From positions 666,188 through 730,187 of the forward strand of contig JAGAMF010000005.1 in assembly GCA_017624855.1 (NCBI GenBank): a stretch of DNA of 64,000 bases, read 5' to 3'. How positions within the stretch are numbered: position 1 is the stretch's first letter; each line of letters opens with the position of its first letter. Position numbers and translations under genes: made by a program. This DNA comes from Lachnospiraceae bacterium (lineage in GTDB: Bacteria > Bacillota > Clostridia > Lachnospirales > Lachnospiraceae). The notes below the pieces were generated by a model. The model worked only from the letters and a program-made list of their open reading frames with translations, was not told where the DNA came from and did not search any database. Shown in pieces: positions 5,698 to 20,359 of the stretch.

Positions 5698-5920
5698 ATA
5701 TTCCCCTCCTGTTTGTAAAAAACTTAACAAACCATTCATAAAAAGTATAACATAAATGTTTGTAGTTGAAAAGAAAAAAGCAGAAGGAGCGTGCATAATA
5801 ATGACAGTGTTTTTTAACAGGCAAAACCTATAAAAAGCATGACGTGAAAGGGGTTTTATGATATCATTTTGAATGTGAAAGATGTGAATCGCCGTTGTCG
5901 AAAATGGGATGGGAGGATAT

Positions 5921-7765
5921 ATGAGAAAAAATCTGATTCTCGTTTTAGAGATATTGTTAATCGGAATTATTACTTTTATATTTTGTTATGGGGATGCGTT
6001 TTATTCCATTGACGCACTGTATAAAGATAAGTTATATCAACAACCTAGGGCAATTGACCCTGCCATAAAAATCATCTCTATCGATGAGAAAACTTTGGAT
6101 GCGTTGGGTCCCTTTGGAACCTGGCCCAGAAGTACCTATGCGGAAGTTTTGGAAATTTTGGAGGATTATCCTGCGGTAGTAGGCTTTGATATTATGCTTA
6201 TTGGTGCCATGGATGAACAGGATGATGCGGTTTTTGCGCAGGCGTTGAGTGAGCGGGACAATGTGGTACTTGCGTCGCATTTGATATATGATTCCAAGGT
6301 GAAAGTAGATGAAAACGGTGAGAATTATATCGATCACATGCATGTGTCTGCGGTGGAAGTTCCTTATACGGGAGATATCACGCCTGTCGGATATGCAAAT
6401 ACTTCACCTGATACGGATGGTACAATACGTTCCTATCTCCCCATTACATTGGTGGAAGATGAAGCAGGGAATGTGACAGAATATACATCCTTATCTTATC
6501 AGATTTATCTGGAATATTGTGAGAGTATGGGCATGGAGCCCTTGAAGCCGGTTACGGATGAAAACGGGGTACAGTGGATTTACTATGCGGGTAAACCTTA
6601 TGATTATGAGAGCATTTCATTGATTGATGTGTTGGAAGGTAAAGTGGACGCCAGGGTGTTTACGGACTGTATTGTGCTGGTGGGAGCGTATGCAACCGGT
6701 TTGCAGGATCAGTTTACGGTACCCAACAGCAGTAATCAGATGTTCGGTGTGGAGATTAATGCGAATCTTATTCAGAGCTTTTTGGATGAGCAACATCCTT
6801 TGCCGGCAAATCGTATGGCGGTATCGGTAATTTTCAGTCTGATTGCCATGGCTATGTTTTATTTGTTCTCGAAATTACATCTAAAATGGGGAACGATTAT
6901 TTTTGTTGTGGCAGAAGTGCTTACTGTGGTTTCGGGTATTTTATTGTTTACCAAGGCGGGTATTAGCATTCCGGGATTCTATTTGGCGCTTATGCTGTTT
7001 GCGGATTATGTGATAGCTTTGGCCGGCGGATATCTTTATGAATGGAGCAAGCGTCGTAAAATCGCCTCCGTATTTCGTAAATATGTGGCACCTCAGGTTG
7101 TGGACGATATTATGAAGTCGGGACGATATAAAATCGAACTGGGGGGCGAAAGCAGAGATATCGCAGTGCTTTTTGTGGATATCCGTGGATTTACGCCGTT
7201 GTCGGAGAGCCTGAAACCCGCAGAAGTTGTGGAAATTTTAAATGAGTATCTGAATCTTACCACCAATGCGGTGTTCAAAAACAGCGGTACCTTGGATAAG
7301 TTTATCGGTGATGCCACCATGGCGGTTTTTAATGCTCCTTTTGATTTGGAGGATTACGAATATAAGGCAGTCTGTGCAGCCTGGGACATTGTGGCCGGAG
7401 CCAAGGAATTGGAGCAGAAATGCATGGAGCGCTTCGGTAAAAGTGTTGCGTTCGGTGTAGGCGTAAACTGCGGGGAGGCAGTAGTGGGTAATATCGGTTG
7501 TGATTTCCGAATGGATTATACCGCAATCGGCGATACGGTAAATACTGCGGCAAGATTGGAGTCCAATGCCAAGCGTGGGCAGGTTTTAATCAGCGAACAT
7601 ATTTATAAGCGCTTGGAAGGTCGTATACAGGTAAATGAAATCGGAGAGATTCCTTTAAAAGGAAAATCGCAGGGCGTTTGCGTATACGAATTGGTAAGTA
7701 TTCACGGAGAAAAGCAGACAAACGCGACGGATGAGGAACCCTGTAATGTAAAGCCGGAAGCATAG
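5921..7765 (+). CDS. CHASE2-domain class III adenylate cyclase
   Basis: 614 residues from ATG 5921, which has GGGAGGA just upstream; an ATG at 5909 would overlap that RBS. An N-terminal membrane segment (about 5-25) leads into an extracellular CHASE2 sensor (about 30-290). Three membrane helices follow (about 295-375), then the cytosolic cyclase domain (about 395-585). The metal-binding aspartates are Asp420 (FVDIRGFT) and Asp464 (FIGDATMAVF); Lys460 matches the purine-selecting Lys of adenylate cyclases, and the NTAARLE transition-state motif is intact. It should therefore make cAMP in response to an unknown extracellular signal. cAMP enzymes are uncommon in Clostridia. No cAMP-binding regulator is in the window. 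birA follows 38 bases later. Confidence 0.88.
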   Translation: MRKNLILVLEILLIGIITFIFCYGDAFYSIDALYKDKLYQQPRAIDPAIKIISIDEKTLDALGPFGTWPRSTYAEVLEILEDYPAVVGFDIMLIGAMDEQDDAVFAQALSERDNVVLASHLIYDSKVKVDENGENYIDHMHVSAVEVPYTGDITPVGYANTSPDTDGTIRSYLPITLVEDEAGNVTEYTSLSYQIYLEYCESMGMEPLKPVTDENGVQWIYYAGKPYDYESISLIDVLEGKVDARVFTDCIVLVGAYATGLQDQFTVPNSSNQMFGVEINANLIQSFLDEQHPLPANRMAVSVIFSLIAMAMFYLFSKLHLKWGTIIFVVAEVLTVVSGILLFTKAGISIPGFYLALMLFADYVIALAGGYLYEWSKRRKIASVFRKYVAPQVVDDIMKSGRYKIELGGESRDIAVLFVDIRGFTPLSESLKPAEVVEILNEYLNLTTNAVFKNSGTLDKFIGDATMAVFNAPFDLEDYEYKAVCAAWDIVAGAKELEQKCMERFGKSVAFGVGVNCGEAVVGNIGCDFRMDYTAIGDTVNTAARLESNAKRGQVLISEHIYKRLEGRIQVNEIGEIPLKGKSQGVCVYELVSIHGEKQTNATDEEPCNVKPEA

Positions 7766-7803
7766 TTAAGAACGATATAAGAAGCAAATAAGAGGACGGC
7801 GTT

Positions 7804-8583
7804 ATGTATACACTCGCAGAAGATAAAATCAAAGAGAAACTTTCTCAAAAAAACATAGATGTCTATGTGTACGAAACCATAGATTCTACCAACGATGAAG
7901 CAAAGAGGCAGTGGAAGGAAAATAAAAAGGCCCCCTGCCTTTTTGTCAGTGAAGAGCAGACGGGAGGTCGCGGCCGTCGTGGACGAAGCTTTTATTCTCC
8001 CAAGGGAACCGGAATATACATGTCGTTACTGATTAAGCCATCCACCGGCTTGGAAGATGCGGTTCACATTACAACGGCGACTTCCGTTGCAGTGGCAAAA
8101 TGCTTGCAGAAGCACATGGGGCTTACGGTAGGAATAAAATGGGTAAACGACTTGTATTACGGAAATAAAAAAGTATGTGGCATCCTAACGGAAGCAATTA
8201 TGGAGCCGGATAACAACGAACATCCTGCCGTGGTTGTGGGCATTGGCGTTAATCTCAGTACTGAAGTTTTTCCGGAGGAATTGCAGGAAACCGCAGGCAG
8301 TCTTGTTAGTGATATGGCGAATACGGATGTGAATGCATTGGTGGCAGCCATTGCCGAAGCTGTACTTTCTTTTGCCGAAAATATAGGTGATTGTTCTTAT
8401 GTGGAAGATTACCGTAAGATGTCCATTGTTTTGGGGAAGGAAATCCGCTATAATGAGGGAGATGTTCAAGTGAAAGCAAAGGCTTTGGATGTGGATTCGG
8501 AAGGCGGTCTTATGGTGGAGCTTGAAGATGGTCTTGTAAAAGTGTTAAAGACCGGTGAGATTACCGTAAGATTGGCCGATTAG
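7804..8583 (+). CDS. birA: Biotin--[acetyl-CoA-carboxylase] ligase, catalytic-only form
   Basis: 259 residues. The biotinyl-AMP loop GGRGRRGRSF (about 54-62) and the catalytic KWVNDLYYG (about 112-120) are clear, followed by GILTEA and a C-terminal SH3-like domain ending ...KTGEITVRL. Unlike bifunctional BirA (about 320 residues), it starts directly with the ligase domain and has no N-terminal winged-helix, so it should biotinylate carrier proteins without acting as a repressor. It lies in a co-directional run with the cyclase upstream and a phosphatase 12 bases downstream. Confidence 0.93.
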   Translation: MYTLAEDKIKEKLSQKNIDVYVYETIDSTNDEAKRQWKENKKAPCLFVSEEQTGGRGRRGRSFYSPKGTGIYMSLLIKPSTGLEDAVHITTATSVAVAKCLQKHMGLTVGIKWVNDLYYGNKKVCGILTEAIMEPDNNEHPAVVVGIGVNLSTEVFPEELQETAGSLVSDMANTDVNALVAAIAEAVLSFAENIGDCSYVEDYRKMSIVLGKEIRYNEGDVQVKAKALDVDSEGGLMVELEDGLVKVLKTGEITVRLAD

Positions 8584-8595
8584 AGGAGATAGATT

Positions 8596-9309
8596 ATGAA
8601 GATTATTTTTATAAGACATGCAGAACCGGACTATTCCATTGATTCGTTAACGGAAAAAGGATGGCGCGAGGCTGAAATTCTGGCAGAACGAGTAAAAGAC
8701 TGGGAGGTGGACCGCTTTTTCGTATCGCCCATGGGCAGAGCAAAAGATACGGCATCTTTGTCTTTGAAGAAATGCAATCGTCAGGCAGAGGAGTTGCCCT
8801 GGTTACAGGAATTTTACTATCGCGTGAAGAGTCCTTTTAACGGTGAGGATATTATTGCGTGGGATTTTATGCCTTCTTATTTTTCAAAGCAGGAAGAATT
8901 GCATGATAAAAATCTGTGGCATGAAACGGAATTGATGAAGTCCGGCAACATGGGCGAGCATTATCGTGAAGTATGCGAAGGCTTTGATGCAATTCTTAAA
9001 GAATACGGATATGAAAGAGAAGAAGGCGGAATGTATCGCGTGAAGGAAAGTAAAGATGTTACATTGGTGTTCTTCTGTCATCTTGGCGTAAGTTTCGTTA
9101 TTATGAGCCATTTACTGGGCATTGCGCCGCCTGTTTTATGGCAGGGCTTTTTCGTGGCACCTACGGCGGTTACCGTTTTAGGATGTGAGGAAAGAATTAA
9201 GGGCGAAGCGGCGTTCCGTGTACAGATTATGGGAGATACCAGACATTTGACCGAGGCGGGAGAGCCTATTTCCGCATCGGGATATTTTACGGATACATTT
9301 CAGTTATAA
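8596..9309 (+). CDS. Histidine phosphatase (phosphoglycerate-mutase superfamily)
   Basis: 237 residues with GAGGAGA upstream. The catalytic RHAE motif is at the start (IIFIRHAEPDYS), and the second catalytic His lies in VFFCHLGVSF, as in two-histidine phosphatases. An insert around residues 85-140 is large for the simplest members. The substrate cannot be deduced; relatives include broad-specificity phosphatases and alpha-ribazole phosphatase, and no cobalamin genes are nearby. Probably the last gene of the cyclase-birA-phosphatase run. Confidence 0.8.
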   Translation: MKIIFIRHAEPDYSIDSLTEKGWREAEILAERVKDWEVDRFFVSPMGRAKDTASLSLKKCNRQAEELPWLQEFYYRVKSPFNGEDIIAWDFMPSYFSKQEELHDKNLWHETELMKSGNMGEHYREVCEGFDAILKEYGYEREEGGMYRVKESKDVTLVFFCHLGVSFVIMSHLLGIAPPVLWQGFFVAPTAVTVLGCEERIKGEAAFRVQIMGDTRHLTEAGEPISASGYFTDTFQL

Positions 9310-9383
9310 AAAAGCAAACATGCATGCATAAAACTGTGTGCATCAAAAGAATATAAAACAATAAACAAGAGAGGTAAATGATT

Positions 9384-9611
9384 ATGATTAATCCTGCAAA
9401 ATTATTAACATTAAAAAAAGATTGGGAAGGCTTTGCTCAAAGACATCCTAAATTTGTTCAGTTTTTTATGACACTTATGCAGAACGGTGTGGGTGTTGGC
9501 AGCGTAATTGATGTTACCGTAACTTTACCCGACGGAAAAAGCTATCAGTCCAACATGCGCCTGACACAGGAAGATGTTGATTTTGTAAAAAACATCGGTA
9601 ACATGATGTAA
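9384..9611 (+). CDS. Small hypothetical protein (75 aa)
   Basis: A short frame starting at ATG 9384, 8 bases after a GAGGT Shine-Dalgarno; the in-frame ATG at 9378 is too close to it. The protein has a Leu/Lys-rich start, RHPKFVQFFMTLMQNG and a C-terminal VTLPDGKSYQSNMRLTQEDV. No membrane segment or known motif. It has its own intergenic regions on both sides and codon use like its neighbours, so I take it as real. Function unknown. Confidence 0.65.
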   Translation: MINPAKLLTLKKDWEGFAQRHPKFVQFFMTLMQNGVGVGSVIDVTVTLPDGKSYQSNMRLTQEDVDFVKNIGNMM

Positions 9612-9685
9612 TTAAAAGGCCATAGGAATATTTTAAATTAAAAAAACTCATACTGATAACATCTTTATGCGGAAAGGTGAAGTTT

Positions 9686-10819
9686 ATGAATAAGCAAATC
9701 GGTATGAGCAGTACACAGCTTGGGGCGCCGGTATACATCCGTGAGTGGGCGTCGGCAGTGGGCAAAAAAGAAGGAGAAGGTCCGTTAAGCCAGCTTTTTG
9801 ATTTTGTGGCAGGGGATGACCTTCTTGGAAACAAAACATGGGAAGAAGCAGAAAGTGCTTTTCAAAAAAAGGCGGTTTCTCTTTTATTTGAAAAGGATCC
9901 CGATACATGCAATCGGGTGCGTTTTTTGCTTGCCGGAGATTTGCTGGGACAGGAGATTGCATCTTCTTTTGGCTTAAAAGATTATCGCATTCCTATGTTT
10001 GGTTTGTATGGTGCCTGTTCTACCTGCGGTGAGTCTTTGGGCCTTGGATCAATGTTAATAGACGGAGGATTTGCTGACCGGTTGGTTTGTGTAACATCCA
10101 GTCATTTTGCCAGTGCAGAGAAGGAATTTCGTTATCCTTTGGATTACGGCAGCCAAAGACCGCCATCTTCCACATGGACAGTGACGGGGAGCGGCGCATA
10201 TCTTTTAAGCAAAGAAAGCGATCGTAAGTATCTTAACAACCAAACGGTGGGAGAAGCGAACCAAAACGATTCTCCAATTGTGGATAAAAGTGTATTTGAT
10301 TTGCCGCGGAAATGTTTTATAGAGCGAAAATATGAAGTGGCAATTACCGGAATTACTACCGGTAAAATTGTGGATTATGGGATTAAGGATTCTATGAATA
10401 TGGGGGCATGTATGGCACCGGCGGCATGCGATACCATCTACCGTAATTTAAGGGATTTTGACAGACAGCCCGGATACTATGACAAAATCATTACCGGTGA
10501 TTTGGGTACGGTGGGACAAACCGTTCTCATTGACTTGTTAAAACAAAAGGGCTATGATATCAGCGACCGTCATATGGATTGCGGCATAGAGATTTTTAAC
10601 GGTGAGGAGCAGGGGACCAATGCCGGCGGTAGCGGTTGCGGTTGTGCGGCAAGTGTGCTTGCGGCATATATTTTACCCAGACTTGCCTGCGGTGAATGGA
10701 AGAGGGTTTTGTTTCTTCCTACGGGAGCATTGCTCAGTAAGGTGAGTTTTAATGAGGGTAAAAGTATCCCGGGCATCGCTCATGCGGTGGTAATCGAGTG
10801 CATGAAGCAGAGCTTGTGA
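9686..10819 (+). CDS. spoVAD: Stage V sporulation protein AD
   Basis: 377 residues from ATG 9686, 6 bases after AAAGGTG. Thiolase-like fold signatures of SpoVAD are present: GLYGACSTCGESLGLG, SSHFASAEKEFRYPLDYG, GSGAYLLS, GDLGTVGQ and a C-terminal LLSKVSFNEGKSIPGIAHAV. In Bacillus, SpoVAD binds dipicolinic acid and is part of the SpoVA channel that loads it into the forespore. Normally it sits in a spoVAC-spoVAD-spoVAE(B) block. Here spoVAC is absent and spoVAE lies about 6 kb downstream beyond unrelated genes. The protein is about 40 residues longer than the usual ~338, through an N-terminal stretch and mid-protein insertions. Confidence 0.87.
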   Translation: MNKQIGMSSTQLGAPVYIREWASAVGKKEGEGPLSQLFDFVAGDDLLGNKTWEEAESAFQKKAVSLLFEKDPDTCNRVRFLLAGDLLGQEIASSFGLKDYRIPMFGLYGACSTCGESLGLGSMLIDGGFADRLVCVTSSHFASAEKEFRYPLDYGSQRPPSSTWTVTGSGAYLLSKESDRKYLNNQTVGEANQNDSPIVDKSVFDLPRKCFIERKYEVAITGITTGKIVDYGIKDSMNMGACMAPAACDTIYRNLRDFDRQPGYYDKIITGDLGTVGQTVLIDLLKQKGYDISDRHMDCGIEIFNGEEQGTNAGGSGCGCAASVLAAYILPRLACGEWKRVLFLPTGALLSKVSFNEGKSIPGIAHAVVIECMKQSL

Positions 10820-10924
10820 AAAGACCGGAATTATATTTGAAAATATAATCGAAAATGATAATCAAGACGATAATATAAAACGATAATTAAACGCAATAAT
10901 AACGAAAGAACTTAGGTAATAGAT

Positions 10925-11827
10925 ATGAAGAAGTGGTTGGGAAGCGGTATGCTTCTTTTGACGGCGATGATTTGGGGTGTGGCCTTTGTTGCCCAAAGTG
11001 TGGGTATGGACTATGTGGAGCCATTTACCTTTAATTTTGCCAGATATATAATAGGCGGTGTTGTGTTACTGCCTTTTTTAAAACTGGGGAATTCTGATTT
11101 GCCAAAAGAAAATACAGAAGATAAAACCAAGAAAAAGCAGTGTCTGCGCCGTTCCGTCATTGGTGGTATCGGTTGCGGTGTACTGTTGTTTTGTGCCAGC
11201 ATGCTGCAACAGTTTGGAATCATGTATACCAATGTGGTGGGAAAAGCAGGTTTTATAACGGCACTTTATATTATTCTTGTGCCGGTACTGGGAATTTTCT
11301 TCCGTAAAAAGACCAAGCCACTGCTTTGGATTTGCGTAGGGATATCCGTGATCGGCCTGTATCTGCTGTGCGTATCGGACGGATATCGTTTGGAACTTGC
11401 GGATATTTTGCTTTTGGCCTGCGCCCTGTTTTTTGCATTCCATATTATATTTATTGATTACATATCTCCCAATACAAACGGTGTATTGGTGTCTTGTGTG
11501 CAGTTTTTTGTGTCGGGACTTTTTTGCATGGTGGCCATGTTTTTGTTTGAAAGTCCCAGTTTCGCAGGTATGTTAAAAGCGTATGTACCGATTCTGTATA
11601 CCGGTGTGCTTTCCTGCGGTGTAGCCTATACATTCCAGATTCTTGGACAAAAGTATGTGGAGCCAACCAAAGCTTCTTTGATTCTGTGCTTAGAGTCCGT
11701 TGTGGCAGTTCTTGCCGGCTGGCTTTTGTTGCAACAGGCATTGAGCATCAGAGAATTGCTTGGATGTATTATTATGTTTGTGGCAATTATTATGGCGCAA
11801 TTCGTGCAAAAAGAAGAATCAATCTAA
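10925..11827 (+). CDS. EamA/DMT-family transporter
   Basis: 300 residues, about ten membrane helices in two EamA repeats (start LTAMIWGVAFVAQSVGM; second half CALFFAFHIIFIDYISP; end LSIRELLGCIIMFVAIIMAQ). Drug/metabolite-superfamily exporters of this type move amino acids, nucleotides or small metabolites; specificity cannot be read. It stands between spoVAD and a strong terminator and has a weak RBS (AGG, 9 bases before ATG). Confidence 0.85.
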   Translation: MKKWLGSGMLLLTAMIWGVAFVAQSVGMDYVEPFTFNFARYIIGGVVLLPFLKLGNSDLPKENTEDKTKKKQCLRRSVIGGIGCGVLLFCASMLQQFGIMYTNVVGKAGFITALYIILVPVLGIFFRKKTKPLLWICVGISVIGLYLLCVSDGYRLELADILLLACALFFAFHIIFIDYISPNTNGVLVSCVQFFVSGLFCMVAMFLFESPSFAGMLKAYVPILYTGVLSCGVAYTFQILGQKYVEPTKASLILCLESVVAVLAGWLLLQQALSIRELLGCIIMFVAIIMAQFVQKEESI

Positions 11828-11858
11828 TATAATAAGGGTCACGGTATTGTAATAGGAT

Positions 11859-11910
11859 TCCCCTTAAGTAGATAAGGTAAATAACCAAAATCTGCTTAAG
11901 GGGATTTTTT
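11859..11910 (+). terminator. Terminator after the EamA transporter
   Basis: Arms TCCCCTTAAGTAGA (11859-11872) and TCTGCTTAAGGGGA (11891-11904) pair with a single G-U, followed by TTTTTT. Long AT-rich loop of 18 bases. Confidence 0.88.
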
Positions 11911-12002
11911 GCGTCTGTTTTCAACTATCGGTTGCTTTTCCCGGGAGGGAGATTTTGTTATATTTTAGGTAAGCCTATAGAAAAATGTGTGAGGGGATTT
12001 TT

Positions 12003-13157
12003 ATGGATTGGGATTTTGGAAAAAAGAATTCAAACAGAGTATATTTAAAAGATGTTGCAGAAATTAGAAAGGGTATTCTTCTTTCGGAGCATGACATACA
12101 TCCGGTAGAGCAGGGAGAAAGCGAACATGAGTATGTTGTGCTTAATCTCAGAAAAGGGAATATGTTTGGTTGTATTTTCTGGGATTCCCAGGATTTGGTA
12201 TGGACAGATAAGCCTGTTCCGAAGGAGTATTTAACACAGTTGAACGATATAATTATTCCGCTGAATAACAGAGAATGGATGCTTATCGTGGGGAAAAAAG
12301 AAGTTGGTTATATTATTCCCGATTATTATATCGTGGTGCGCACAAATCGCAGGAAGCTTCTTCCGGAGTATTTATACAAAATTGTGTCTGACAACAGACG
12401 AAAACTTGGTTCAAGTTTCTGCTTAGGCAGTGAAAAGAAAATTTTTTGGGCAGAGTTTTCCGGCGAAGAGTGCCCTCCCATAGGAATGGAAGACTATCTT
12501 TTGGCAGAATTGGAATTAAAAGACATAGAGAACCAGAAACATGAAGGAGGAGCAATTCGCTCCAGAATGAATGCACGCGGAGATTATTATGAACAGGCAA
12601 AATTGCATGAAAAAATAAGCAGAAGTTGTGAATTGCAGCGAAAGTGGGAGGCTGAGGGACTGTATCATATAGAAGGAAAAGATTATCATTTGGAGGTAAT
12701 AGAATCTTTAAGAGAATCGGTGCATTTGGAAGATGATAAAATTGTTGTAAATGTGGTAGATGCAATGGATAATACCCGCATTAAGCGGATGCTTATAAAA
12801 TGGTATCATGAATATTGTGAAGTTATAGCTAAAAAATATATGGATGAAAACTATCCCAGATTTGCTGCCTATAACATTCCTTATCCGACTATTGAATTAT
12901 TGGAAATGAAGGCGGTTATGGGAAAATGTAATTGTGAGAAAGGCAAGATAAAATTCAGTACGATATTGTTTTCCTTGCCGCCTAAATATATTGAATATGT
13001 TGTTGTGCATGAGTTGGCTCATTTCGTTTATCACAATCATAAAAAAGATTTTTGGTTACTTGTGGAAGAAATAATGCCCGATTGGAAACAGTATGATGAA
13101 AGCTTGGGTGATGAATTAAGAAACAGAAGATGCATAAGAAAAAAAGACATGTTCTAA
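12003..13157 (+). CDS. HsdS-TRD-like domain fused to a YgjP-like zinc metallopeptidase
   Basis: 384 residues from ATG 12003 (GAGGGG 6 bases upstream). The first ~165 residues look like one half of a type I restriction specificity subunit: opening LKDVAEIRKGILLS, then YVVLNLRKG, DIIIPLNNR and the closing YYIVVRTNRRKLLPEYLYKIV. A helical linker follows (about 165-215). The C-terminal part is a YgjP/DUF45 (WLM/SprT-like) metallopeptidase with HELAH at 336-340, a third zinc ligand His346 and FW after it, then EEIMPDWK. No methylase or restriction subunit is nearby. I infer sequence-directed DNA binding coupled to proteolysis, perhaps of DNA-bound proteins. A degenerate paralogue follows 38 bases downstream. 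Domain calls are by motif, without a profile search. Confidence 0.75.
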   Translation: MDWDFGKKNSNRVYLKDVAEIRKGILLSEHDIHPVEQGESEHEYVVLNLRKGNMFGCIFWDSQDLVWTDKPVPKEYLTQLNDIIIPLNNREWMLIVGKKEVGYIIPDYYIVVRTNRRKLLPEYLYKIVSDNRRKLGSSFCLGSEKKIFWAEFSGEECPPIGMEDYLLAELELKDIENQKHEGGAIRSRMNARGDYYEQAKLHEKISRSCELQRKWEAEGLYHIEGKDYHLEVIESLRESVHLEDDKIVVNVVDAMDNTRIKRMLIKWYHEYCEVIAKKYMDENYPRFAAYNIPYPTIELLEMKAVMGKCNCEKGKIKFSTILFSLPPKYIEYVVVHELAHFVYHNHKKDFWLLVEEIMPDWKQYDESLGDELRNRRCIRKKDMF

Positions 13158-13195
13158 AACGGAGATATGCATATTAGGAGATCGGAGGAAACAGT

Positions 13196-14314
13196 ATGAG
13201 GGTCGATTTAAAAGATACTGCCACCATATTGCGGGGGGCTGAAATAGGTTCAACTGAGGTTTCGGTATCGGATTCGGGCGAATATAAATATATTGTTTTG
13301 GACATAAAAAAAGTAGACGATATGGGATGTTTCGTTCACGAAGATGATGACTGTATAAGAACCAACAATATTGTAGATTCCGGCTATATTACCGCAAAAG
13401 GCGATGTGATTGCCGGCATATCAAAAGAGGATGCGGTTTTTGTGGTAGGAGAAGCGGAAGAGGGATATATTATCCCTTCGGATTGTGTTGTTTTTAGGAC
13501 AAATGCCAATCAATTGTTGCCGGAATATCTTTGCAAAGAAATTACCTGTTATAAGGCAGGGGGCGGAACTTCGTTTTTGCCTGCCGGAGCTGAAGATCGG
13601 TTTTGGATGAATTTTGATAAATTCGGTGAGGAGGACGATGCGGAAGAACTTCATGGTGATTGTTTTGATTCATATTTTTGCGGAAAAATTGATCTGCCGG
13701 CATTGGATGAGCAGGAGAAAGAAGGCGAAAGTGTAAGAAAGTGTTTGAAAGAGCGTGCAATGGCATATATTATGAATGGCACACTCGATGAAAGTCCGAC
13801 TAAGAAAAAGGATATTTACTATGAGATTTTGGGAGAAATTTATGATTTTGAAGTGAGAAAAAGCGAGGAAGAAAGCGTCGATATTGAAAATGACAGCGCA
13901 ATCGTGGTGCGGACAAATCATGTAACCAATAAAAGAAGAGTTGAGAAATTGTTATCTGATTGGTATCGTGCATGGTGTGAAGAAATTGTCGGCGAAGTTT
14001 TAGAGAAATATAAAGATGCAATCAATAAATACAGTGTGGCTTTTCCGGAGTATGAAATTATGACCATGGATGATAAACTGATTCGCTACTTTCCCAAAGA
14101 AAATAAGTTGATTATAGATCCTATGCTTTTTACGGCGCCGAGAGAGTATGTGGAATATGTGATAATAGAGCATTTTATTCGTTGCTCTCATCGTGGTGAT
14201 TTATTATCTTTTGCAGAGATAATGCATGAAATAATGCCCGGGTGGCTGGAATATGCAATCCTTTTAAATGACACGATGAATTCAGTTTATTGTATAAAAA
14301 TTGTTCCCGCATAA
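13196..14314 (+). CDS. Paralogue of the TRD-metallopeptidase fusion with lost zinc site
   Basis: 372 residues with CGGAGG 7 bases before the ATG. It has the same plan as the preceding gene: DLKDTATILRGAEIG start, YIVLDIKKV, GDVIAGISK, CVVFRTNANQLLPEYL, a linker, then a YgjP-type fold with LLSDWYRAWCEE and EYVIIEHF...HEIMPGW. Aligned without gaps between EYV and EIMP, the HELAH ligands become EHFIR (325-329) and the third His becomes Asp. The catalytic Glu and all three zinc ligands are gone, so it should be a pseudo-enzyme. It is likely co-transcribed with the active-looking copy and closed by its own terminator. A partner, regulator or decoy role is inference. Confidence 0.72.
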   Translation: MRVDLKDTATILRGAEIGSTEVSVSDSGEYKYIVLDIKKVDDMGCFVHEDDDCIRTNNIVDSGYITAKGDVIAGISKEDAVFVVGEAEEGYIIPSDCVVFRTNANQLLPEYLCKEITCYKAGGGTSFLPAGAEDRFWMNFDKFGEEDDAEELHGDCFDSYFCGKIDLPALDEQEKEGESVRKCLKERAMAYIMNGTLDESPTKKKDIYYEILGEIYDFEVRKSEEESVDIENDSAIVVRTNHVTNKRRVEKLLSDWYRAWCEEIVGEVLEKYKDAINKYSVAFPEYEIMTMDDKLIRYFPKENKLIIDPMLFTAPREYVEYVIIEHFIRCSHRGDLLSFAEIMHEIMPGWLEYAILLNDTMNSVYCIKIVPA

Positions 14315-14345
14315 TTTATTTATATCTGTATAAAATATTACTTAT

Positions 14346-14386
14346 AAAAGTACATATGATCCCTTGGGGAGATATGTACTTTTTTA
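14346..14386 (+). terminator. Terminator after the TRD-metallopeptidase pair
   Basis: Arms AAAAGTACATAT and ATATGTACTTTT form a perfect 12-bp stem around a 14-base loop, with a T run. It separates the pair from the PTS gene and marks the two fusion genes as one unit. Confidence 0.87.
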
Positions 14387-14462
14387 TATGCGCAGATAGT
14401 ATGAAAGAAATATCCGGTGAGAGATAAAAGAGAATCCGGTTTGCGCAGGAACGGAGAACAAT

Positions 14463-16721
14463 ATGAAAGATAAAATTTTTGGCGTGCTTCAACGGGTGGG
14501 AAGGTCTTTTATGCTTCCCATTGCCATTTTGCCGGCAGCAGGTTTACTTCTGGGATTTGGTGGTTCGTTTAGTAATATGACCACCTTGGAAACTTATGGA
14601 TTAACCGAAATTATGGGGCCGGGAACCATATTGAATGCAATTTTTATTGTGATGAGGGATGCGGGAGATATTGTATTCGCAAACCTGCCCCTTATTTTTG
14701 CCATTGGTGTTGCTATCGGTATGGCAAAACAGGAGAAAGCGGTGGCGGCATTGGCGGCGGCCATTGCATTTTTTATCATGCACGCATCCATTGGTGCCTT
14801 AATTACCATTCGAGGTGGGGCGGAGAGTATGTTAAGTGGGGCTGTTGCCTCCGTATGTGGCATTACTTCCCTGCAAATGGGTGTGTTTGGTGGTATTTTG
14901 GTGGGGATTGGTGTGGCATGGCTGCATAATCGATTCTATAAAATTGAGCTTCCCAAGGTGCTTTCTTTTTTCGGAGGCACAAGATTTGTGCCCATTATCA
15001 GTGCGCTGGTGTATACACTTGTGGGTATTTTAATGTTTTTTATCTGGCCTGTGATTCAAAGCGGTATTTATGCGGTGGGTGATTTCGTGTTGCGTTCCGG
15101 TTATTTTGGTACATGGATATATGGCTTAATGGAGCGGCTTTTAATTCCTTTCGGCCTGCATCATGTATTTTATCTACCTTTTTGGCAAACAGGTCTTGGC
15201 GGAACCATGGAAATAGACGGGCGGCTGGTTGAGGGGGCTCAAAACATTTTCTTTGCTCAGCTGGCATCTCCCAATGTGAATCGGTTTGCGGTATCGGCTA
15301 CCCGATTTATGTCGGGAAAATTCCCGCTGATGATTTTTGGATTGCCCGGTGCGGCGCTGGCAATGTATCGCACCGCACGACTGGAAAACCGTAAAAAAGT
15401 AGGCGGTTTGTTACTGTCTGCCGCGCTGACATCCATGTTAACCGGTATTACGGAACCGTTGGAATTTACCTTCCTGTTTGTGGCACCTCTTTTATACGGT
15501 ATTCATTGTGTGTTTGCGGGACTGGCATATATGCTTATGCATGTATTTCAGGTCGGCGTGGGCATGACTTTTTCGGGCGGTTTGGTTGACTTATTCCTTT
15601 TTGGTATTTTACAGGGGAATGCTAAAACCAATTGGATTTGGATCGTAATTGTGGGCGTGTTTTATTTCGTAGCATACTATTTAATCTTTTATTTCCTGAT
15701 TAAAAAAATGGATTTAAAAACACCCGGCCGAGGTGAAGAGGAAGAAATAAAATTGTACAGCCGCAAAGACATGGAAGCAAAGGCACAAAAAGGCGAAAGT
15801 GATTCGGAGAAAGAAAGTGGAGCGATGCTTTTATCCCGGAATATCTGCCGGGGACTTGGCGGAGTTGCCAATATTTCCGACATTGACTGTTGTGCCACAA
15901 GATTACGATGTACCGTGCATAAAGCGGAATTGGTGGATGATGCATTTCTAAAAGATACAGGTGCTTCGGGAGTGATTCATAAGGGAAACGGCGTACAGAT
16001 TATCTATGGTCCGCGGGTCACAGTAATTAAGTCTGATTTGGAGGAATATATTGAGAGGTTCCCGGAAGGAGAAGATGTAGAGGTAAGACACAGTGACTCA
16101 TTGGAACAGATGAGTGAAACAGATGGTGTAAAGAAAGGAGAACAGGCTATGTTTGGTAAACGGGATAAAAAAGAAAAGACATATGAGGAAAAGCCGAAGA
16201 ACGGTTGCAGCAAAGTGATATATGCGGACCCGGATGCGCAAAAAGAACGCAGGCTTACCAAGTCAGTGGTGATTTGCAGCCCCATTACGGGAGTTGCTTC
16301 AGAATTGTCGGAGGTGCCGGATGAAGCATTTTCTAAGAAAATAGTAGGTGACGGTGTGGCAATTACGCCTGCTGACGGTAACATTTATGCACCGGAAGAC
16401 GGTGAAATTGTATTTGTTTACGATACTAAGCATGCGATTGGATTCTTATCTTACACCGGAATTCCCCTTTTGCTTCACATCGGTATTGATACGGTTAAAT
16501 TAAACGGACAGGGATTTGAGGTATTGGTTGAGAATGGTCAGAAGGTAAAAAAAGGCGAGCTTCTTATGCGAGTGGCTTTGTCTTATATTCAGGCAAATGC
16601 TCCCAGCACCATGTCTCCTGTTATTCTTTCCGAAATGCATGAAAATCAGGAAATCAGAATTTTAAAAACCGGCAAAGTAGAAGCGGGAGAAGAATTATTT
16701 GCGGTGGATTTTTATGAGTAA
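14463..16721 (+). CDS. PTS glucose-family permease, fused EIIC-EIIB-EIIA
   Basis: 752 residues. EIIC (1-~415) has about ten membrane segments and the substrate-region motifs GLHHVFYLPFW and GITEPLEF. EIIB (about 460-535) carries the phosphorylated Cys477 in DCCATRLR. EIIA (about 605-745) carries the active His672 (LLLHIGIDTV) and the supporting His657 (TKHAIGF). The protein takes phosphate from HPr and imports and phosphorylates a hexose. The glucose/maltose/N-acetylglucosamine subfamilies share these motifs, so the sugar is uncertain. The EIIB-EIIA linker (about 540-600) is long and charged. I see no antiterminator RNA in the leader and no sugar-metabolism genes next to it. Confidence 0.88.
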   Translation: MKDKIFGVLQRVGRSFMLPIAILPAAGLLLGFGGSFSNMTTLETYGLTEIMGPGTILNAIFIVMRDAGDIVFANLPLIFAIGVAIGMAKQEKAVAALAAAIAFFIMHASIGALITIRGGAESMLSGAVASVCGITSLQMGVFGGILVGIGVAWLHNRFYKIELPKVLSFFGGTRFVPIISALVYTLVGILMFFIWPVIQSGIYAVGDFVLRSGYFGTWIYGLMERLLIPFGLHHVFYLPFWQTGLGGTMEIDGRLVEGAQNIFFAQLASPNVNRFAVSATRFMSGKFPLMIFGLPGAALAMYRTARLENRKKVGGLLLSAALTSMLTGITEPLEFTFLFVAPLLYGIHCVFAGLAYMLMHVFQVGVGMTFSGGLVDLFLFGILQGNAKTNWIWIVIVGVFYFVAYYLIFYFLIKKMDLKTPGRGEEEEIKLYSRKDMEAKAQKGESDSEKESGAMLLSRNICRGLGGVANISDIDCCATRLRCTVHKAELVDDAFLKDTGASGVIHKGNGVQIIYGPRVTVIKSDLEEYIERFPEGEDVEVRHSDSLEQMSETDGVKKGEQAMFGKRDKKEKTYEEKPKNGCSKVIYADPDAQKERRLTKSVVICSPITGVASELSEVPDEAFSKKIVGDGVAITPADGNIYAPEDGEIVFVYDTKHAIGFLSYTGIPLLLHIGIDTVKLNGQGFEVLVENGQKVKKGELLMRVALSYIQANAPSTMSPVILSEMHENQEIRILKTGKVEAGEELFAVDFYE

Positions 16722-16795
16722 TCCTTGGCGATATCATTTAGAAACATTGGCTATTGTGAAATCAGATTATAAATTTAGAAAGTGTAAAAGAAATT

Positions 16796-17152
16796 ATGAT
16801 TTATATTAAAGCATTTGTGATTGGAGGGCTGATTTGTTTGCTCTGCCAGATACTATTGGAGAAAACCAAAATGATGCCGGGCAGAATTATGGTGTTGTTG
16901 GTATGTCTCGGCGCGGTATTAAGTTTCTTTGGTTTGTACGAGCCTTTTCTGGAATTTGCCGGAGCGGGAGCGTCAGTGCCCCTACTGGGCTTTGGACATG
17001 TGCTTATGGATGGTGTAAAAGAAGCTGTAGATGAGAATGGCTTTCTTGGTGTTTTTCAGGGCGGATTTAAGGCCGGTGCCTTAGGCACGGCTGCTGCGTT
17101 AATCTTTGGCTATATTGCCAGTTTGATATTTAATCCGAAGAGCAGGAGTTGA
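16796..17152 (+). CDS. spoVAE: Stage V sporulation protein AE
   Basis: 118 residues, the usual length for SpoVAE(B). Four hydrophobic segments; family motifs include AFVIGGLICLLCQIL, KMMPGRIMV, GFGHVLMDGVKEAV and GGFKAGALGTAAALIFGY. It is a membrane part of the SpoVA dipicolinate channel. It is not adjacent to spoVAD (9686-10819), being separated by the transporter, the TRD-metallopeptidase pair and the PTS gene. The Shine-Dalgarno is weak, but the start gives the expected N-terminus. Confidence 0.85.
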   Translation: MIYIKAFVIGGLICLLCQILLEKTKMMPGRIMVLLVCLGAVLSFFGLYEPFLEFAGAGASVPLLGFGHVLMDGVKEAVDENGFLGVFQGGFKAGALGTAAALIFGYIASLIFNPKSRS

Positions 17153-17160
17153 AAGAAAAA

Positions 17161-17200
17161 AGGATTGAGGGTTACTTCCCGAACCCCTCAATCCTCTTTC
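17161..17200. terminator. Bidirectional terminator between convergent spoVAE and the LytTR gene
   Basis: Arms AGGATTGAGGGTT (17161-17173) and AACCCCTCAATCCT (17182-17195) with an A-rich left and T-rich right flank, so it can stop transcription both ways. It overlaps the last codons of the minus-strand gene. Confidence 0.8.
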
Positions 17201-17867
17201 TATCGCCCCAACCCAAGGGCACCTTGGAGTGATCGCTTAACATCACATGGTTTTTCTCTATCTTTACAATGTGGTTGAAATTCACCACATATTTTTTCCC
17301 AAGAAGTAAGAAGGACTCAAAGGGCTGCAACACCGGAATCAATTCCTGTAATGTGCCAAGCTGCATAATGACGCGACCGTCTTTTAATACAATTTTGGTA
17401 CGATATCCGTCGGGATACGCGTAGATGAAATCTTCTTCATAAATATAATAAGTGTTTAAATCGTCACGAATTTCAATGGTGGGAGCGGCTTTCTTTTGCT
17501 TTGCTTCCACTTTATTTATAATTTCGGTTAATTCTTCCGGCTTAAAGGGTTTATCAATATATAAAAGCTCCACAGGAGGCTTGGCATAATCTTCATAGCG
17601 GATAGAAGATGTGCAGAGTACAATGGGAGCCACAACGCCCATTTCGCGCAACAAAATAGCAGTTTCCATGCCATAAGGCGGAAGCTGCGTCATATCGATA
17701 AAAAACAAATCATAAATCATGGGCGACTTGGTTAATGCGTCTACATTACCATAGGCATCAATATACAGAATGCCCTTCGTGTCTTTTCTGCGGTCCGATT
17801 CACGGCCCAACAATCGTTCCAAGTGTTTACGATCTGCTATATTGTCATCACAAATTGCTATATGCAT
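17172..17867 (-). CDS. LytTR-family response regulator (orphan)
   Basis: 231 residues. An N-terminal receiver domain has acidic Asp7/Asp8, phosphoacceptor Asp58 (LFFIDM) and Lys106 (IDKPF). The C-terminal LytTR DNA-binding domain (about 130-228) contains YIYEEDFIYAYPDGYRTKIV, the FLLLGKKYVVNFNHI strand-turn and a closing VPLGWGDRKRIE. Such AgrA/LytR-type regulators usually pair with a HPK10 sensor kinase; none is nearby. The hydrophobic TQLPPYGMET segment is atypical for a receiver. Targets are unknown. Confidence 0.88.
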   Translation of the reverse strand: MHIAICDDNIADRKHLERLLGRESDRRKDTKGILYIDAYGNVDALTKSPMIYDLFFIDMTQLPPYGMETAILLREMGVVAPIVLCTSSIRYEDYAKPPVELLYIDKPFKPEELTEIINKVEAKQKKAAPTIEIRDDLNTYYIYEEDFIYAYPDGYRTKIVLKDGRVIMQLGTLQELIPVLQPFESFLLLGKKYVVNFNHIVKIEKNHVMLSDHSKVPLGWGDRKRIEGFGK

Positions 17868-17947
17868 AGCGAATATCCCCCAAAATAAACCTATATTTTA
17901 ATCGTGCTTTCTTTCCGAATTTGAACAATAAAAAGTATTTCACGCTT

Positions 17948-18241
17948 TTACATCAATTTAATGTCAAAAGGCAGATAAAAAAGCAAGATAGCAAATAAAA
18001 TCTGTCCTATAAGAATAGCCGGCATTCCCCAAACGAAAGAGCGGTGTTTGGTTTTATGACGAAATGTATACATGCCAAGAATTGCGCCGATACTTCCGCC
18101 GATGGCCGCCAGAATAAAAAGAGTGGCTTCAGGAATTCTCCACGCACGCTTTTTGGCTTTCCACTTATCAATTCCCATTACCGTAAAAGCGATAATGTTC
18201 ATGAACAGTGAATAAATTGCCAGCAAGTAGATTGTTTCCAT
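17948..18241 (-). CDS. DUF1294 small membrane protein
   Basis: 97 residues with three to four hydrophobic segments and the family signature GIDKWKAKKRAWRIPE, then GGSIGAILGMYTFRHKT. DUF1294 proteins are widespread and uncharacterised; some are fused to cold-shock domains, this one is not. Lies alone between the LytTR gene and argG, on the same strand as both. Confidence 0.85.
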   Translation of the reverse strand: METIYLLAIYSLFMNIIAFTVMGIDKWKAKKRAWRIPEATLFILAAIGGSIGAILGMYTFRHKTKHRSFVWGMPAILIGQILFAILLFYLPFDIKLM

Positions 18242-18318
18242 AAAGCCACCCTATAAATTCATAAAACAAAACTAAAAGTTACAACAGAAGTTTGTCTGTC
18301 ATAAGTGACAGCATCAAC

Positions 18319-19539
18319 TTATTTTAATTCGCCAACTTCCTGCATCTTCAGTGCACGAACCTTACATGAGAGACCGAAGAGATTGATAAATCCTTCTGCG
18401 TCATGGTGGTCGTACATATCACCGGTTGTGAATGAAGCAATGCTTTCATTGTAAAGAGTATAAGGAGAGGTTGTACCTGCCTTAATAATGTTACCCTTGT
18501 ACAATTTAAACTTAACTTCACCGGTTACATACTGCTGTGTAGACTCGATAAATGCCTGAAGCGCTTCACGAATAGGTGTAAACCACTTTCCTTCATATAC
18601 GATATCGGCAAATTTGTTACCTAAGTCTTTCTTTAATGTGTATGTATCTCTGTCGAGGATTAATTCTTCCAACTGCTGATGTGCTTCGTAGAGAATGGTT
18701 CCGCCCGGTGTTTCGTATACACCACGAGACTTCATACCTACTACACGGTTTTCAACGATATCAACAATACCGATACCGTGCTTTCCGCCAAGCTTGTTTA
18801 ATTCACGAATGATATCGGAAACCTTCATAGCCTTGCCGTTGATTGCAGTGGGAACACCCTTTTCAAAAGAAATGCTTACATATTCGCCTTCATCGGGAGC
18901 CTTCTCGGGAGTTGTGCCGAGAACCAAAAGGTGATCGTAGTTAGGCTCGTTAGCGGGATCTTCCAATTCAAGACCTTCATGGCTGATATGCCAGATGTTA
19001 CGGTCACGGCTGTAGCTGCTGTCAGCTGAGAAAGGAAGGTGGATGCCGTGAGCTTCACAGTATTCGATTTCTGATTCACGGGAATCCATTGTCCACTTAT
19101 CGTTACGCCATGCAGCGATAATCTTTAAATCGGGAGCAAGTGCTTTGATACCAAGTTCGAAACGAATCTGGTCGTTACCCTTACCTGTTGCACCGTGGCA
19201 GATAGCAGTAGCGCCTTCTTTACGAGCGATTTCAACCAATCTCTTAGCAATAACGGGTCTTGCCATTGATGTACCGAGAAGGTATTTATTCTCATATACA
19301 GCATGAGCCTGTACACAGGGAACGATGTATTCGTCACAGAATTCATCGATTACATCTTCGATGTAGAGCTTCTCTGCACCGCTTAACTTTGCACGTTCCT
19401 CAAGTCCGTCAAGTTCGCTTTCCTGACCGCAGTCGATACATACGCAGATAACTTCGTAGTCAAAATTCTCTTTTAACCAGGGAATAATGGCTGTGGTATC
19501 CAGACCACCGGAATATGCCAAAACAACTTTTTCTTTCAT
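18319..19539 (-). CDS. argG: Argininosuccinate synthase
   Basis: 406 residues from the ATG with AGGAGGATAAAAAA upstream on the minus strand; a longer frame adds nine residues without an RBS. The ATP pyrophosphatase motif AYSGGLDTT is at the N-terminus, with [11 protein letters not shown] and [13 protein letters not shown] further on. It joins citrulline and aspartate using ATP, the penultimate step of arginine synthesis. argH, which normally follows, is not present here. It is divergent from the GNAT-argJ-argB-argD operon, and the shared intergenic region carries ArgR-like boxes. Confidence 0.96.
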
Positions 19540-19583
19540 TTTTTTATCCTCCTGAAATTTAATCATACATGTTCAACAAACCT

Positions 19584-19612
19584 AATATACAACACTATTT
19601 CCCTAAAATCAA
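19584..19612 (-). promoter_or_regulatory. argG promoter
   Basis: On the minus strand, a -35 TTGATT (19607-19612) and a -10 TATATT (19584-19589) are separated by 17 bp. The ArgR-like boxes begin about 20 bp upstream of this -35. Confidence 0.6.
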
Positions 19613-19631
19613 GGATATTTTTAAAAAAGAT

Positions 19632-19685
19632 TGCATAAAAATGCATAAAATAATGTATAAAATGCAAATTTATGCATAATATGCA
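19632..19685. promoter_or_regulatory. Three ArgR-like operators (ARG boxes)
   Basis: TGCATAAAAATGCA (19632-19645), TGTATAAAATGCA (19654-19666) and TGCATAATATGCA (19673-19685) are spaced roughly two helical turns apart. They match the AT-rich TG(A/C)AT-N4-AT(G/T)CA palindrome bound by arginine repressors and lie between argG and the GNAT-argJBD operon, where ArgR control is expected. Confidence 0.75.
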
Positions 19686-19714
19686 AAAGAAATGAATATT
19701 TTTCGAAAAAATGC

Positions 19715-19742
19715 TAGACTTTTTTGAAAATAGTGTTATGAT
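19715..19742 (+). promoter_or_regulatory. Candidate promoter of the GNAT-argJ-argB-argD operon
   Basis: TAGACT (19715-19720) and TATGAT (19737-19742) with a 16-bp spacer, about 80 bases before the first gene. Imperfect -35; the call rests mostly on position. Confidence 0.45.
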
Positions 19743-19789
19743 ATCAATGATATATTCGGAAAACATACTTTATTTATAAGTGCATGGAA

Positions 19790-19803
19790 TGCATTTTTAT
19801 GCA
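19790..19803. promoter_or_regulatory. Fourth ArgR-like box in the operon leader
   Basis: TGCATTTTTATGCA is the exact reverse complement of the box at 19632-19645. It lies just upstream of the Shine-Dalgarno of the first gene, downstream of the candidate promoter, suiting repression by blocking elongation or DNA looping with the upstream boxes. Confidence 0.7.
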
Positions 19804-19824
19804 TCCTTTGACATCGGAGGATAA

Positions 19825-20289
19825 ATGGAAGATAAGAATAAGGTTATCATTCGGGTTATGACACCGGAGGATTATGACCAGATAAAAGAATTATGGTTAA
19901 GCATCAAAGGATTTGTCATCCGAAGCGTGGACGATTCCCGCGAAGGCGTTGAGGCCTTTTTACGACGAAATCCTACAACCAGTGCGGTGGCGGAGGTAAA
20001 CGGCGAAATCGTAGGCGGAATTCTTTGCGGGCATGACGGGCGACGCGGTTGCATGTATCATGTGTGTGTAAGAGAGGATCATCGTATGCAGGGTATCGGT
20101 AAGCAGATGGTAGTGTTTTGCATGGATGCATTGCGAAGAGAGAAAATCAATAAGGTTTCGCTGATTGCTTTTACAAGGAACGATATAGGTAACCGTTTCT
20201 GGAACCAAATCGGCTGGACCAAAAGAGAAGATTTAAATTATTACGATTTTACTTTAAATAAAGAAAATATTGAGAAGTTTAATCAGTAA
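19825..20289 (+). CDS. GNAT N-acetyltransferase, first gene of the arginine operon
   Basis: 154 residues with CGGAGG 6 bases upstream. The acetyl-CoA motif VREDHRMQGIGKQM (R-x-x-G-x-G type) and ARNDIGNRFWNQIGW-like end (FTRNDIGNRFWNQIGW) are typical. Its place directly ahead of argJ, behind the ArgR boxes, suggests a role linked to arginine synthesis, possibly as a short N-acetylglutamate synthase or an accessory to ArgJ. It lacks the kinase-like domain of classical ArgA. The sequence alone does not show the acceptor. Confidence 0.8.
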   Translation: MEDKNKVIIRVMTPEDYDQIKELWLSIKGFVIRSVDDSREGVEAFLRRNPTTSAVAEVNGEIVGGILCGHDGRRGCMYHVCVREDHRMQGIGKQMVVFCMDALRREKINKVSLIAFTRNDIGNRFWNQIGWTKREDLNYYDFTLNKENIEKFNQ

Positions 20290-20359
20290 CAACGAAAAAA
20301 TAAAACATACATAAATAATGAAGAATTTGTCCAAGTGACAGTTCGGAACGGAGGAATAT

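What the first reader, a model, noticed from the sequence alone, without database searches (positions are those of the whole stretch)
12003..14314. Tandem HsdS-TRD/YgjP-metallopeptidase fusions, one active-looking and one dead
Seen: both proteins begin with a region resembling half of a type I specificity subunit and end in a YgjP/DUF45 domain. The first keeps HELAH plus a third His; in the second an ungapped alignment turns these into EHFIR and Asp. The two form one unit between terminators, with no R-M genes around. Known: HsdS TRDs read DNA sequence; YgjP/WLM/SprT-type proteases include DNA-protein-crosslink proteases. Inference: a DNA-guided protease with a pseudo-enzyme partner, possibly for crosslink repair or phage defence. 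I know of no described system with this architecture.
Basis: partly seen in the sequence, partly recalled or inferred. Interest (0 to 1): 0.8.

Follow-up and report, generated by a model that had tools for sequence, protein, structure and literature searches.

The report
Fused end-genes of a restriction operon
Two neighbouring bacterial genes each join the small first protein and the protease-like last protein of a common type of DNA-restriction operon into one chain, one copy with its protease site intact and one with it destroyed, which hints that the two parts work together on foreign-DNA defence.

Summary
Two tandem, related ORFs (31% identical) have an HsdS-like N-terminal half and a YgjP metallopeptidase C-terminal half; the first keeps HExxH plus the third His, the second has lost them. 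The new result is their origin. Outside this genome, the N-terminal half matches a distinct "half-S" family: 17 of 18 hits at E<=1e-7 are the first gene of an operon half-S–HsdM–HsdS–HsdR–YgjP, YgjP last; the 18th is cut by a contig end. Both YgjP domains score better with a profile of YgjP from such operons than with one of other YgjP. So the proteins most likely fuse the first and last genes of one type I restriction operon class, then duplicated. They sit as a low-GC3 insertion between a transporter and a PTS gene that adjoin in three sister species. No other fusion was seen. Half-S follows the operon's history while HsdS does not, so it looks like a fixed companion rather than a swappable sequence reader; this weakens "DNA-guided". 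Most likely (inferred) an orphan protease/pseudoprotease pair that docks through its half-S parts and acts on restriction complexes. Structure prediction could not be run.

The parts
12003..13157 (+). P1: half-S / YgjP fusion, HExxH and third His kept (384 aa)
   Evidence: ORF; PF01863 E 1.7e-33; half-S profile
12036..12458 (+). P1 residues 12-152: HsdS-like half-S domain
   Evidence: hhalign to 17 half-S proteins, E 1.5e-18; tree 100/99 inside half-S family
12459..12611 (+). P1 residues 153-203: presumed remnant of the half-S conserved helix and the junction; residues 153-200 are the least conserved between P1 and P2 (10 of 48 identical)
   Evidence: the helix is assigned by eye only
12612..13106 (+). 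P1 residues 204-368: YgjP metallopeptidase domain; first 46 profile positions unmatched
   Evidence: PF01863 positions 47-204 of 207
13008..13040 (+). HELAH (13008-13022) and H346 (13038-13040), presumed zinc site of P1
   Evidence: sequence
13196..14314 (+). P2: half-S / YgjP fusion without HExxH (372 aa), 38 nt after P1, GGAGG before its start
   Evidence: ORF; PF01863 E 6.4e-12; sequence
14168..14182 (+). E-H-F-I-R in P2 at the place of HELAH
   Evidence: ungapped pairing
11860..11910 (+). Inverted repeat followed by a T run (CCCCTTAAG...CTTAAGGGGATTTTTT) between transporter gene and P1; by eye not present in the three sister genomes
   Evidence: sequence; alignment; not among the hits of the consensus scan, which allows loops of 3-8 only
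14349..14386 (+). Hairpin plus T run belonging to the PTS gene, conserved in sister genomes that lack P1-P2; marks the right edge of the insertion

Best explanation
P1 and P2 descend from one protein made by joining the first gene (half-S) and the last gene (YgjP) of a half-S–HsdM–HsdS–HsdR–YgjP type I restriction operon, most simply by loss of the genes between them, followed by tandem duplication, loss of the zinc site in P2, and horizontal transfer of the two-gene unit. (Descent of both halves from this operon class: well supported. Route and order of events: inferred.) Working model, inferred: the half-S parts pair P1 with P2, as half HsdS subunits can pair, and dock the pair on HsdM/HsdR-type complexes or on the DNA that they hold; P1's protease head then cuts a protein there, most likely a restriction subunit, while P2 is a scaffold or brake. 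It would be a detached restriction-control or antirestriction protease.
For: Origin: 17 of 18 outside genomes with a half-S hit at E<=1e-7 have the complete five-gene order, the 18th (G766) is cut by its contig end. Starting from the other end, a profile of 16 operon-linked YgjP brought 15 viral-collection loci; 10 held a YgjP ORF by phmmer, HsdR directly precedes it in 9 of the 9 with upstream sequence, and half-S–HsdM stand in front in 6 of those 9; since the query was itself operon-linked this shows consistency, not independence. P1 and P2 YgjP domains score 132.7 and 78.4 bits with a profile of 21 operon-linked YgjP against 110.7 and 27.6 with one of 22 others; leave-one-out control 21 of 21 and 20 of 22 right. 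A 3-residue stretch missing in 26 of 28 other YgjP is present in P1, P2 and 8 of 8 operon-linked ones. N-termini of P1 and P2 are sisters (100/100) inside the half-S family. Transfer: GC3 0.353/0.354 against 0.407-0.455 in nine other genes of the window; transporter and PTS genes adjoin in 3 of 3 sister genomes that have the PTS gene. P2 kept open: 372 codons without a stop, chance in random sequence of its composition 8e-14, and differences P1/P2 by codon position 0.56/0.41/0.65. Mechanism: fusion of two genes of one operon suggests joint action (general principle, recalled); YgjP identity follows HsdR across 14 operons (r 0.93), and the two genes overlap or lie within 21 nt in those 14; precedents: ArdC, DNA-binding domain plus Spartan-like metalloprotease, antirestriction (PMC7213743, passages); ClpXP destroys HsdR to relieve restriction (PMC4231737, abstract); two copies of a half HsdS in an engineered enzyme (PMC2877798, start of abstract in a listing).
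Against: No activity, binding partner or expression is known. P1 lacks the family's W-G-S motif, so it may be inactive too. HsdM follows HsdR even more closely (r 0.97) than YgjP does, so a special YgjP-HsdR link is not shown. ArdC's protease centre was not needed for its antirestriction function. The YgjP tree does not settle P1's place: it falls on the operon side (split 91/99, with two YgjP, L003 and L014, that have no Hsd gene near) but AU tests do not reject other placements (p 0.19, 0.23). One of 29 comparison YgjP loci (L026) has an HsdR match within its flanks although it groups with the others, so an HsdR neighbour is not confined to the operon side. The half-S tree puts P1/P2 in the family but not closer to half-S of YgjP operons than to 8 half-S without a YgjP seen; that link rests on the search ranking. 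The host's own type I system (L074) has no half-S or YgjP. No second fusion was found to show that the arrangement is kept.
Confidence: 0.45

Rival explanations
1. Stand-alone defence effector: half-S parts sense foreign DNA or phage protein-DNA complexes and P1 cleaves a host or phage protein, with P2 as inhibitor.
For: Derived from a defence operon; present as a compact two-gene insertion; a published type I island with an M48 metallopeptidase gene downstream protects against phages as a whole (PMC12255303, passages).
Against: No defence neighbours among the window genes scanned (10 by Pfam, 5909-21580: sporulation, transport, arginine and other household genes; 10 others by PADLOC, from 32060 on: WYL-type and Cas3c hits of one regulator-like protein only); the role of the peptidase in the published island is not tested in the passages I read.
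Confidence: 0.2
2. One reading: sequence-guided DNA-protein-crosslink protease with a pseudoenzyme partner.
For: HsdS-type fold by sequence; the YgjP profile matches projannalysin (E 2.5e-7) and Wss1p (E 0.006).
Against: Half-S is a fixed companion of its operon, not a swappable reader; nothing seen ties it to crosslink repair.
Confidence: 0.1
3. Relic: a collapsed restriction operon whose fused ends are no longer functional or are dying.
For: Single genome; P2 lost its zinc site and has a long branch (3.05 against 0.99 for P1); P1 lost W-G-S; the YgjP N-terminus is short.
Against: Both frames are open with ribosome sites after deep divergence; second codon positions most conserved; the pair stands as one insertion.
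Confidence: 0.2

Closest known systems
Type I restriction-modification operon with half-S first and YgjP/M48/SprT-family peptidase last (e.g. L042, L043, L052)
   Same: Both domain families, in the same order, are the two end genes of this operon
   Different: P1/P2 have them fused and duplicated, without HsdM, HsdS, HsdR; one copy is dead; YgjP N-terminus shortened
RRDM defence island of enteropathogenic E. coli (PMC12255303)
   Same: Type I R-M with a predicted M48-family Zn metallopeptidase gene as the downstream flank
   Different: DarTG between HsdS and HsdR and the repressor RptR first; no half-S in the passages read; whether that peptidase is YgjP was not tested here
ArdC antirestriction protein (PMC7213743)
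   Same: N-terminal DNA-binding domain plus C-terminal Spartan-like metalloprotease in one chain, acting against type I restriction
   Different: Its N-terminal domain is a non-specific ssDNA-binding domain likened to Rad4 BHD2, not HsdS; no paired dead copy mentioned in the passages read
YgjP/PF01863, SprT, WLM/Wss1 metalloproteases
   Same: HExxH...H site, domain match
   Different: Other domain architecture; P1 lacks W-G-S; P2 lacks the site

Membership tests
Type I restriction-modification system | HsdR, HsdM and HsdS encoded together | tested here: not met
   Neighbours of P1-P2 are EamA transporter and PTS; no N6_Mtase match inside the window
HsdS specificity subunit | Two TRDs separated by conserved helices, PF01420 | tested here: not met
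   One HsdS-like half only; no PF01420 hit for P1 or P2
Half-S family | Sequence falls inside the half-S clade, apart from HsdS halves | tested here: met
   Tree 100/99; P1N+P2N 100/100; hhalign 1.5e-18
Half-S family | Gene directly before HsdM in a type I operon | tested here: not met
   No HsdM next to P1 or P2
YgjP-like metallopeptidase PF01863 | Match above gathering score | tested here: met
   116.8 and 46.4 bits, cut-off 26
YgjP-like metallopeptidase PF01863 | HExxH and third His | tested here: inconclusive
   Met in P1, not met in P2
YgjP-like metallopeptidase PF01863 | W-G-S motif (as seen in relatives here) | tested here: not met
   M-G-K in P1, lost in P2; invariant in 16 of 16 operon-linked YgjP
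DNA-protein-crosslink protease (Spartan/Wss1/SprT) | DNA-dependent cleavage of crosslinked protein | not testable with these tools
   Only distant profile similarity
ArdC-type antirestriction protein | ssDNA-binding N-terminal domain of the ArdC kind | not tested
   N-terminal region matches half-S/HsdS instead; ArdC itself was not compared

The most novel reading that the evidence does not exclude
The pair is a new stand-alone machine: a heterodimer of half-S-tethered protease and pseudoprotease, cut loose from its restriction operon, that finds DNA-bound restriction or phage complexes and destroys a protein in them; by extension, half-S and YgjP form a hidden two-part protease module in the type I operons that carry both.
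Probability: 0.25. Interest if true: 0.75.

Novelty: new variant of a known kind. Interest (0 to 1): 0.52.

Why it matters
It ties together two accessory genes, half-S and YgjP, that bracket a type I restriction operon found here in 17 genomes across one phylum, and predicts that their products touch each other. That can be tested directly in the ordinary operons. If YgjP acts on restriction subunits, these operons carry their own restriction-control protease, a job that ClpXP does for EcoKI in E. coli.

Tried and rejected
Sequence-guided TRD reading: weakened. Widespread fusion family: none seen in six genome searches with the N-terminal profile (397, 31, 392, 391, 398 and 48 genomes, overlapping), nor as a P1 match covering the N-terminus outside G000 among the 61 genomes; none in two scans of genome contigs (exact short peptide patterns, so near relatives only), one of viral contigs with the fusion alignment, nor by tblastn of P1 in plasmids and phages (0 of 532 and 0 of 9 matching records cover 80% of P1). 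Weaker N-terminal hits with long frames (G441, G873, G935 second hit, G995, G1417, G1202) were checked in their short loci: HsdM- or S-like or unassigned, no YgjP hit. Weaker half-S hits: G150, G093, G629 are half-S–HsdM loci without YgjP in the stretch taken; G910 (E 1.1e-4) has the full operon; G318, G180, G063, G1370, G1208 (second hit) were seen only in loci of about 3 kb, G927 and G947 are cut by contig ends, so their YgjP status is unknown. Pair between two terminators of its own: the right one is the PTS hairpin. Promoter-like sites: 12 against 9.6 (sd 3.4) in shuffles. PHROGs: only weak hits of unknown function for P1. Half-S in plasmids by tblastn: no match. Papers: searches; no title or abstract listed described an HsdS/YgjP fusion; the two hits were false matches to DUF450; passages of PMC6102843 and PMC5512222 did not bear on it. 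Structure prediction was asked for 14 times; each time the queue was full, so no fold was tested.

Labels: the comparison YgjP are hits of P1 in relatives. Rows left out of the 21-against-22 profile test: near-copies or uncertain rows L053, L073/L114, L108, L110, L117, L118, L119 on one side and L013, L017-L020, L023 on the other.

Full report
What is there. Two ORFs, P1 (12003-13157) and P2 (13196-14314), lie 38 nt apart on the + strand, each with a plausible ribosome site. They align end to end at 29-31% identity. Both have a YgjP-like metallopeptidase domain in the C-terminal half. P1 keeps HELAH and the third His; P2 has no HExxH in any alignment. P1 has lost the W-G-S of the family, invariant in 16 of 16 operon-linked YgjP, so 'active-looking' should be read with care. 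By single-sequence scans the HsdS likeness of the N-termini is marginal.

Where the halves come from. I searched genomes with a profile of the two N-termini. In the genus only the window's genome has them (1 of 31). In family, order, class and phylum samples (397, 392, 391, 398 genomes, overlapping) 18 other genomes gave a hit at E<=1e-7. I took the surroundings of all 18. In 17 the hit is a half-S gene of 188-237 aa at the head of an operon that continues with HsdM, HsdS, HsdR and ends with YgjP; in the 18th the contig stops inside the half-S gene. In one of the 17 (L100) HsdS is split into two ORFs, and in two (L056, L101) about 0.85 kb separates half-S from HsdM. Pfam confirms N6_Mtase/HsdM_N, Methylase_S, HSDR_N/SWI2_SNF2 and YgjP for the genes of L042. 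Hits weaker than 1e-7 are mixed: G910 has the whole operon; G150, G093 and G629 are half-S–HsdM loci without YgjP in the stretch taken; others were seen only in short loci.

The same operon is reached from the other end, though with a query that was itself operon-linked. A profile of 16 such YgjP brought 15 loci from the viral collection. Ten held a YgjP ORF by phmmer; one of these starts at its contig end; in the other nine HsdR directly precedes YgjP, and six of the nine show half-S and HsdM in front (two of the other three begin inside HsdM). For contrast, six YgjP genes of order-level relatives had no Hsd gene within 6.8-19 kb (L058-L063), and 28 of 29 P1-hit loci of relatives had none within their short flanks; the exception, L026, has an HsdR match. 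An annotated plasmid of Aliarcobacter cryaerophilus also has HsdM, HsdS, HsdR and then a 'SprT family zinc-dependent metalloprotease', without a half-S in the part shown, which starts inside HsdM.

Are P1 and P2 from this class? N-terminus: in a tree of 45 sequences the half-S family separates from 16 HsdS halves cut from 8 proteins (100/99), and P1 and P2 sit inside it as sisters (100/100). Within the family their place is open: the tree does not set them nearer to half-S of YgjP operons than to 8 half-S for which no YgjP was seen. The ranking does: all readable hits at E<=1e-7 are of the YgjP kind. Profile comparison to 17 half-S proteins gives E 1.5e-18. C-terminus: P1 and P2 score 22 and 51 bits better with a profile of 21 operon-linked YgjP than with one of 22 others; leave-one-out put 21 of 21 and 20 of 22 on the expected side (the two exceptions are L003 and L014; L026, with its HsdR, scored with the others). 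They also share a 3-residue stretch with 8 of 8 operon-linked YgjP that 26 of 28 others lack. Trees agree in direction but not decisively: without P2, P1 falls on the operon side of a 91/99 split, but AU tests do not reject alternatives (p 0.19 and 0.23). Taken together I regard descent from the two end genes of this operon class as well supported (about 0.8).

How it got here. Three of the 30 other genomes of the genus have the same PTS gene at E<=1e-100, and in all three the EamA transporter and the PTS gene adjoin without P1-P2. The hairpin before the PTS gene is conserved there and is therefore not a terminator of the pair's own. GC at third positions is 0.353/0.354 in the pair and 0.407-0.455 in nine other window genes measured. 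The two genes thus look like a recent insertion of an older pair. P2 stayed open over 372 codons while diverging, and codon position 2 differs least between P1 and P2 (0.41, against 0.56 and 0.65), which argues against an old pseudogene. No strain-level data were available.

What half-S is. A specificity subunit should be exchanged freely between operons. Across 14 operons (91 pairs), HsdS identity hardly follows HsdR identity (r 0.33), while HsdM (0.97), YgjP (0.93) and half-S (0.74) do. Pairs share sequences, so these are descriptions, not tests. Mean identities are 35.8% for half-S and 32.4% for HsdS, against 25.1% for shuffled half-S. Half-S behaves as a fixed companion of the operon, even though its fold is HsdS-like by sequence (12 of 17 match PF01420 at E<=0.01; solved HsdS chains). 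The 14 are part of the 18 operons with full gene order (17 plus G910); L053, L100, L108 and L110 were left out as near-copies or for the split HsdS.

How it most likely works (inferred). Genes fused somewhere usually act together, so half-S and YgjP probably meet in the ordinary operon. Half HsdS subunits can be used in two copies (PMC2877798, start of abstract seen). P1 and P2 may pair in this way, giving a complex with one live-looking and one dead protease head, docked on restriction complexes or DNA. The substrate is unknown; a restriction subunit is my first guess because of the operon origin and because proteolysis of HsdR is an established control (ClpXP; PMC4231737, abstract). ArdC shows that a DNA-binding domain with a Spartan-like domain can counter type I restriction, though its protease centre was not needed (PMC7213743, passages).

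Known and new. A SprT/M48-type gene beside HsdR is visible in annotation, and one functional study names an M48-family metallopeptidase downstream of hsdR in a phage-protective island (PMC12255303, passages), without, in what I read, a test of that gene. I found no description of the half-S–YgjP bracket or of a fusion in the paper searches made, which cover open papers only and were judged mostly from listings. The finding is a new variant made of known parts.

Limits. The genome is 74.5% complete and unnamed. Structure prediction never started because the queue was full at all 14 attempts. The metagenome collection was not open. The fusion is known from one genome only.

Noticed in passing
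L074 8088-18560 (own genome, about 50 kb upstream of the pair, outside the window): Type I R-M locus with HsdM, HsdS and a 1517-aa ORF that carries both Methylase_S and HsdR domains (an HsdS-HsdR fusion), followed by a phage-type integrase and a GmrSD protein.
   Followed up: partly
L053 5239-5961 (G630): Operon-linked YgjP with HKLCH in place of HExxH, while its close sister in L054 (G505) has HELCH: a second loss of the catalytic Glu.
   Followed up: no
L026 (G041): YgjP with an HsdR match in its flank, yet grouping with the other YgjP and lacking the 3-residue stretch: an HsdR neighbour may have arisen more than once.
   Followed up: no
L042, L043, L073, L129 between HsdM and HsdR: Different extra genes sit there in different copies of the operon (annotated RhuM, KAP NTPase and ATP-binding proteins in L129; in the others a nucleotidyltransferase-like and a trypsin-like protein by eye, not scanned), as if this place takes cargo.
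   Followed up: no
same-genus genomes: 22 of 30 other same-genus genomes have a YgjP match without the N-terminal part; the window's genome (74.5% complete) has none besides P1-P2.
   Followed up: no
window 9677-10819 and 16796-17152: SpoVAD and a SpoVAC/SpoVAEB-type gene lie on either side of the insertion.
   Followed up: no
PDB 8vsq/8vsr: A solved protein of 198-206 aa named Esub1 matches the half-S profile (E 0.0034); one paper search for it found nothing.
   Followed up: partly
window 14463-16721 and G000:C12 464468-466093: The genome has a second PTS gene 64% identical to the one beside the pair.
   Followed up: no
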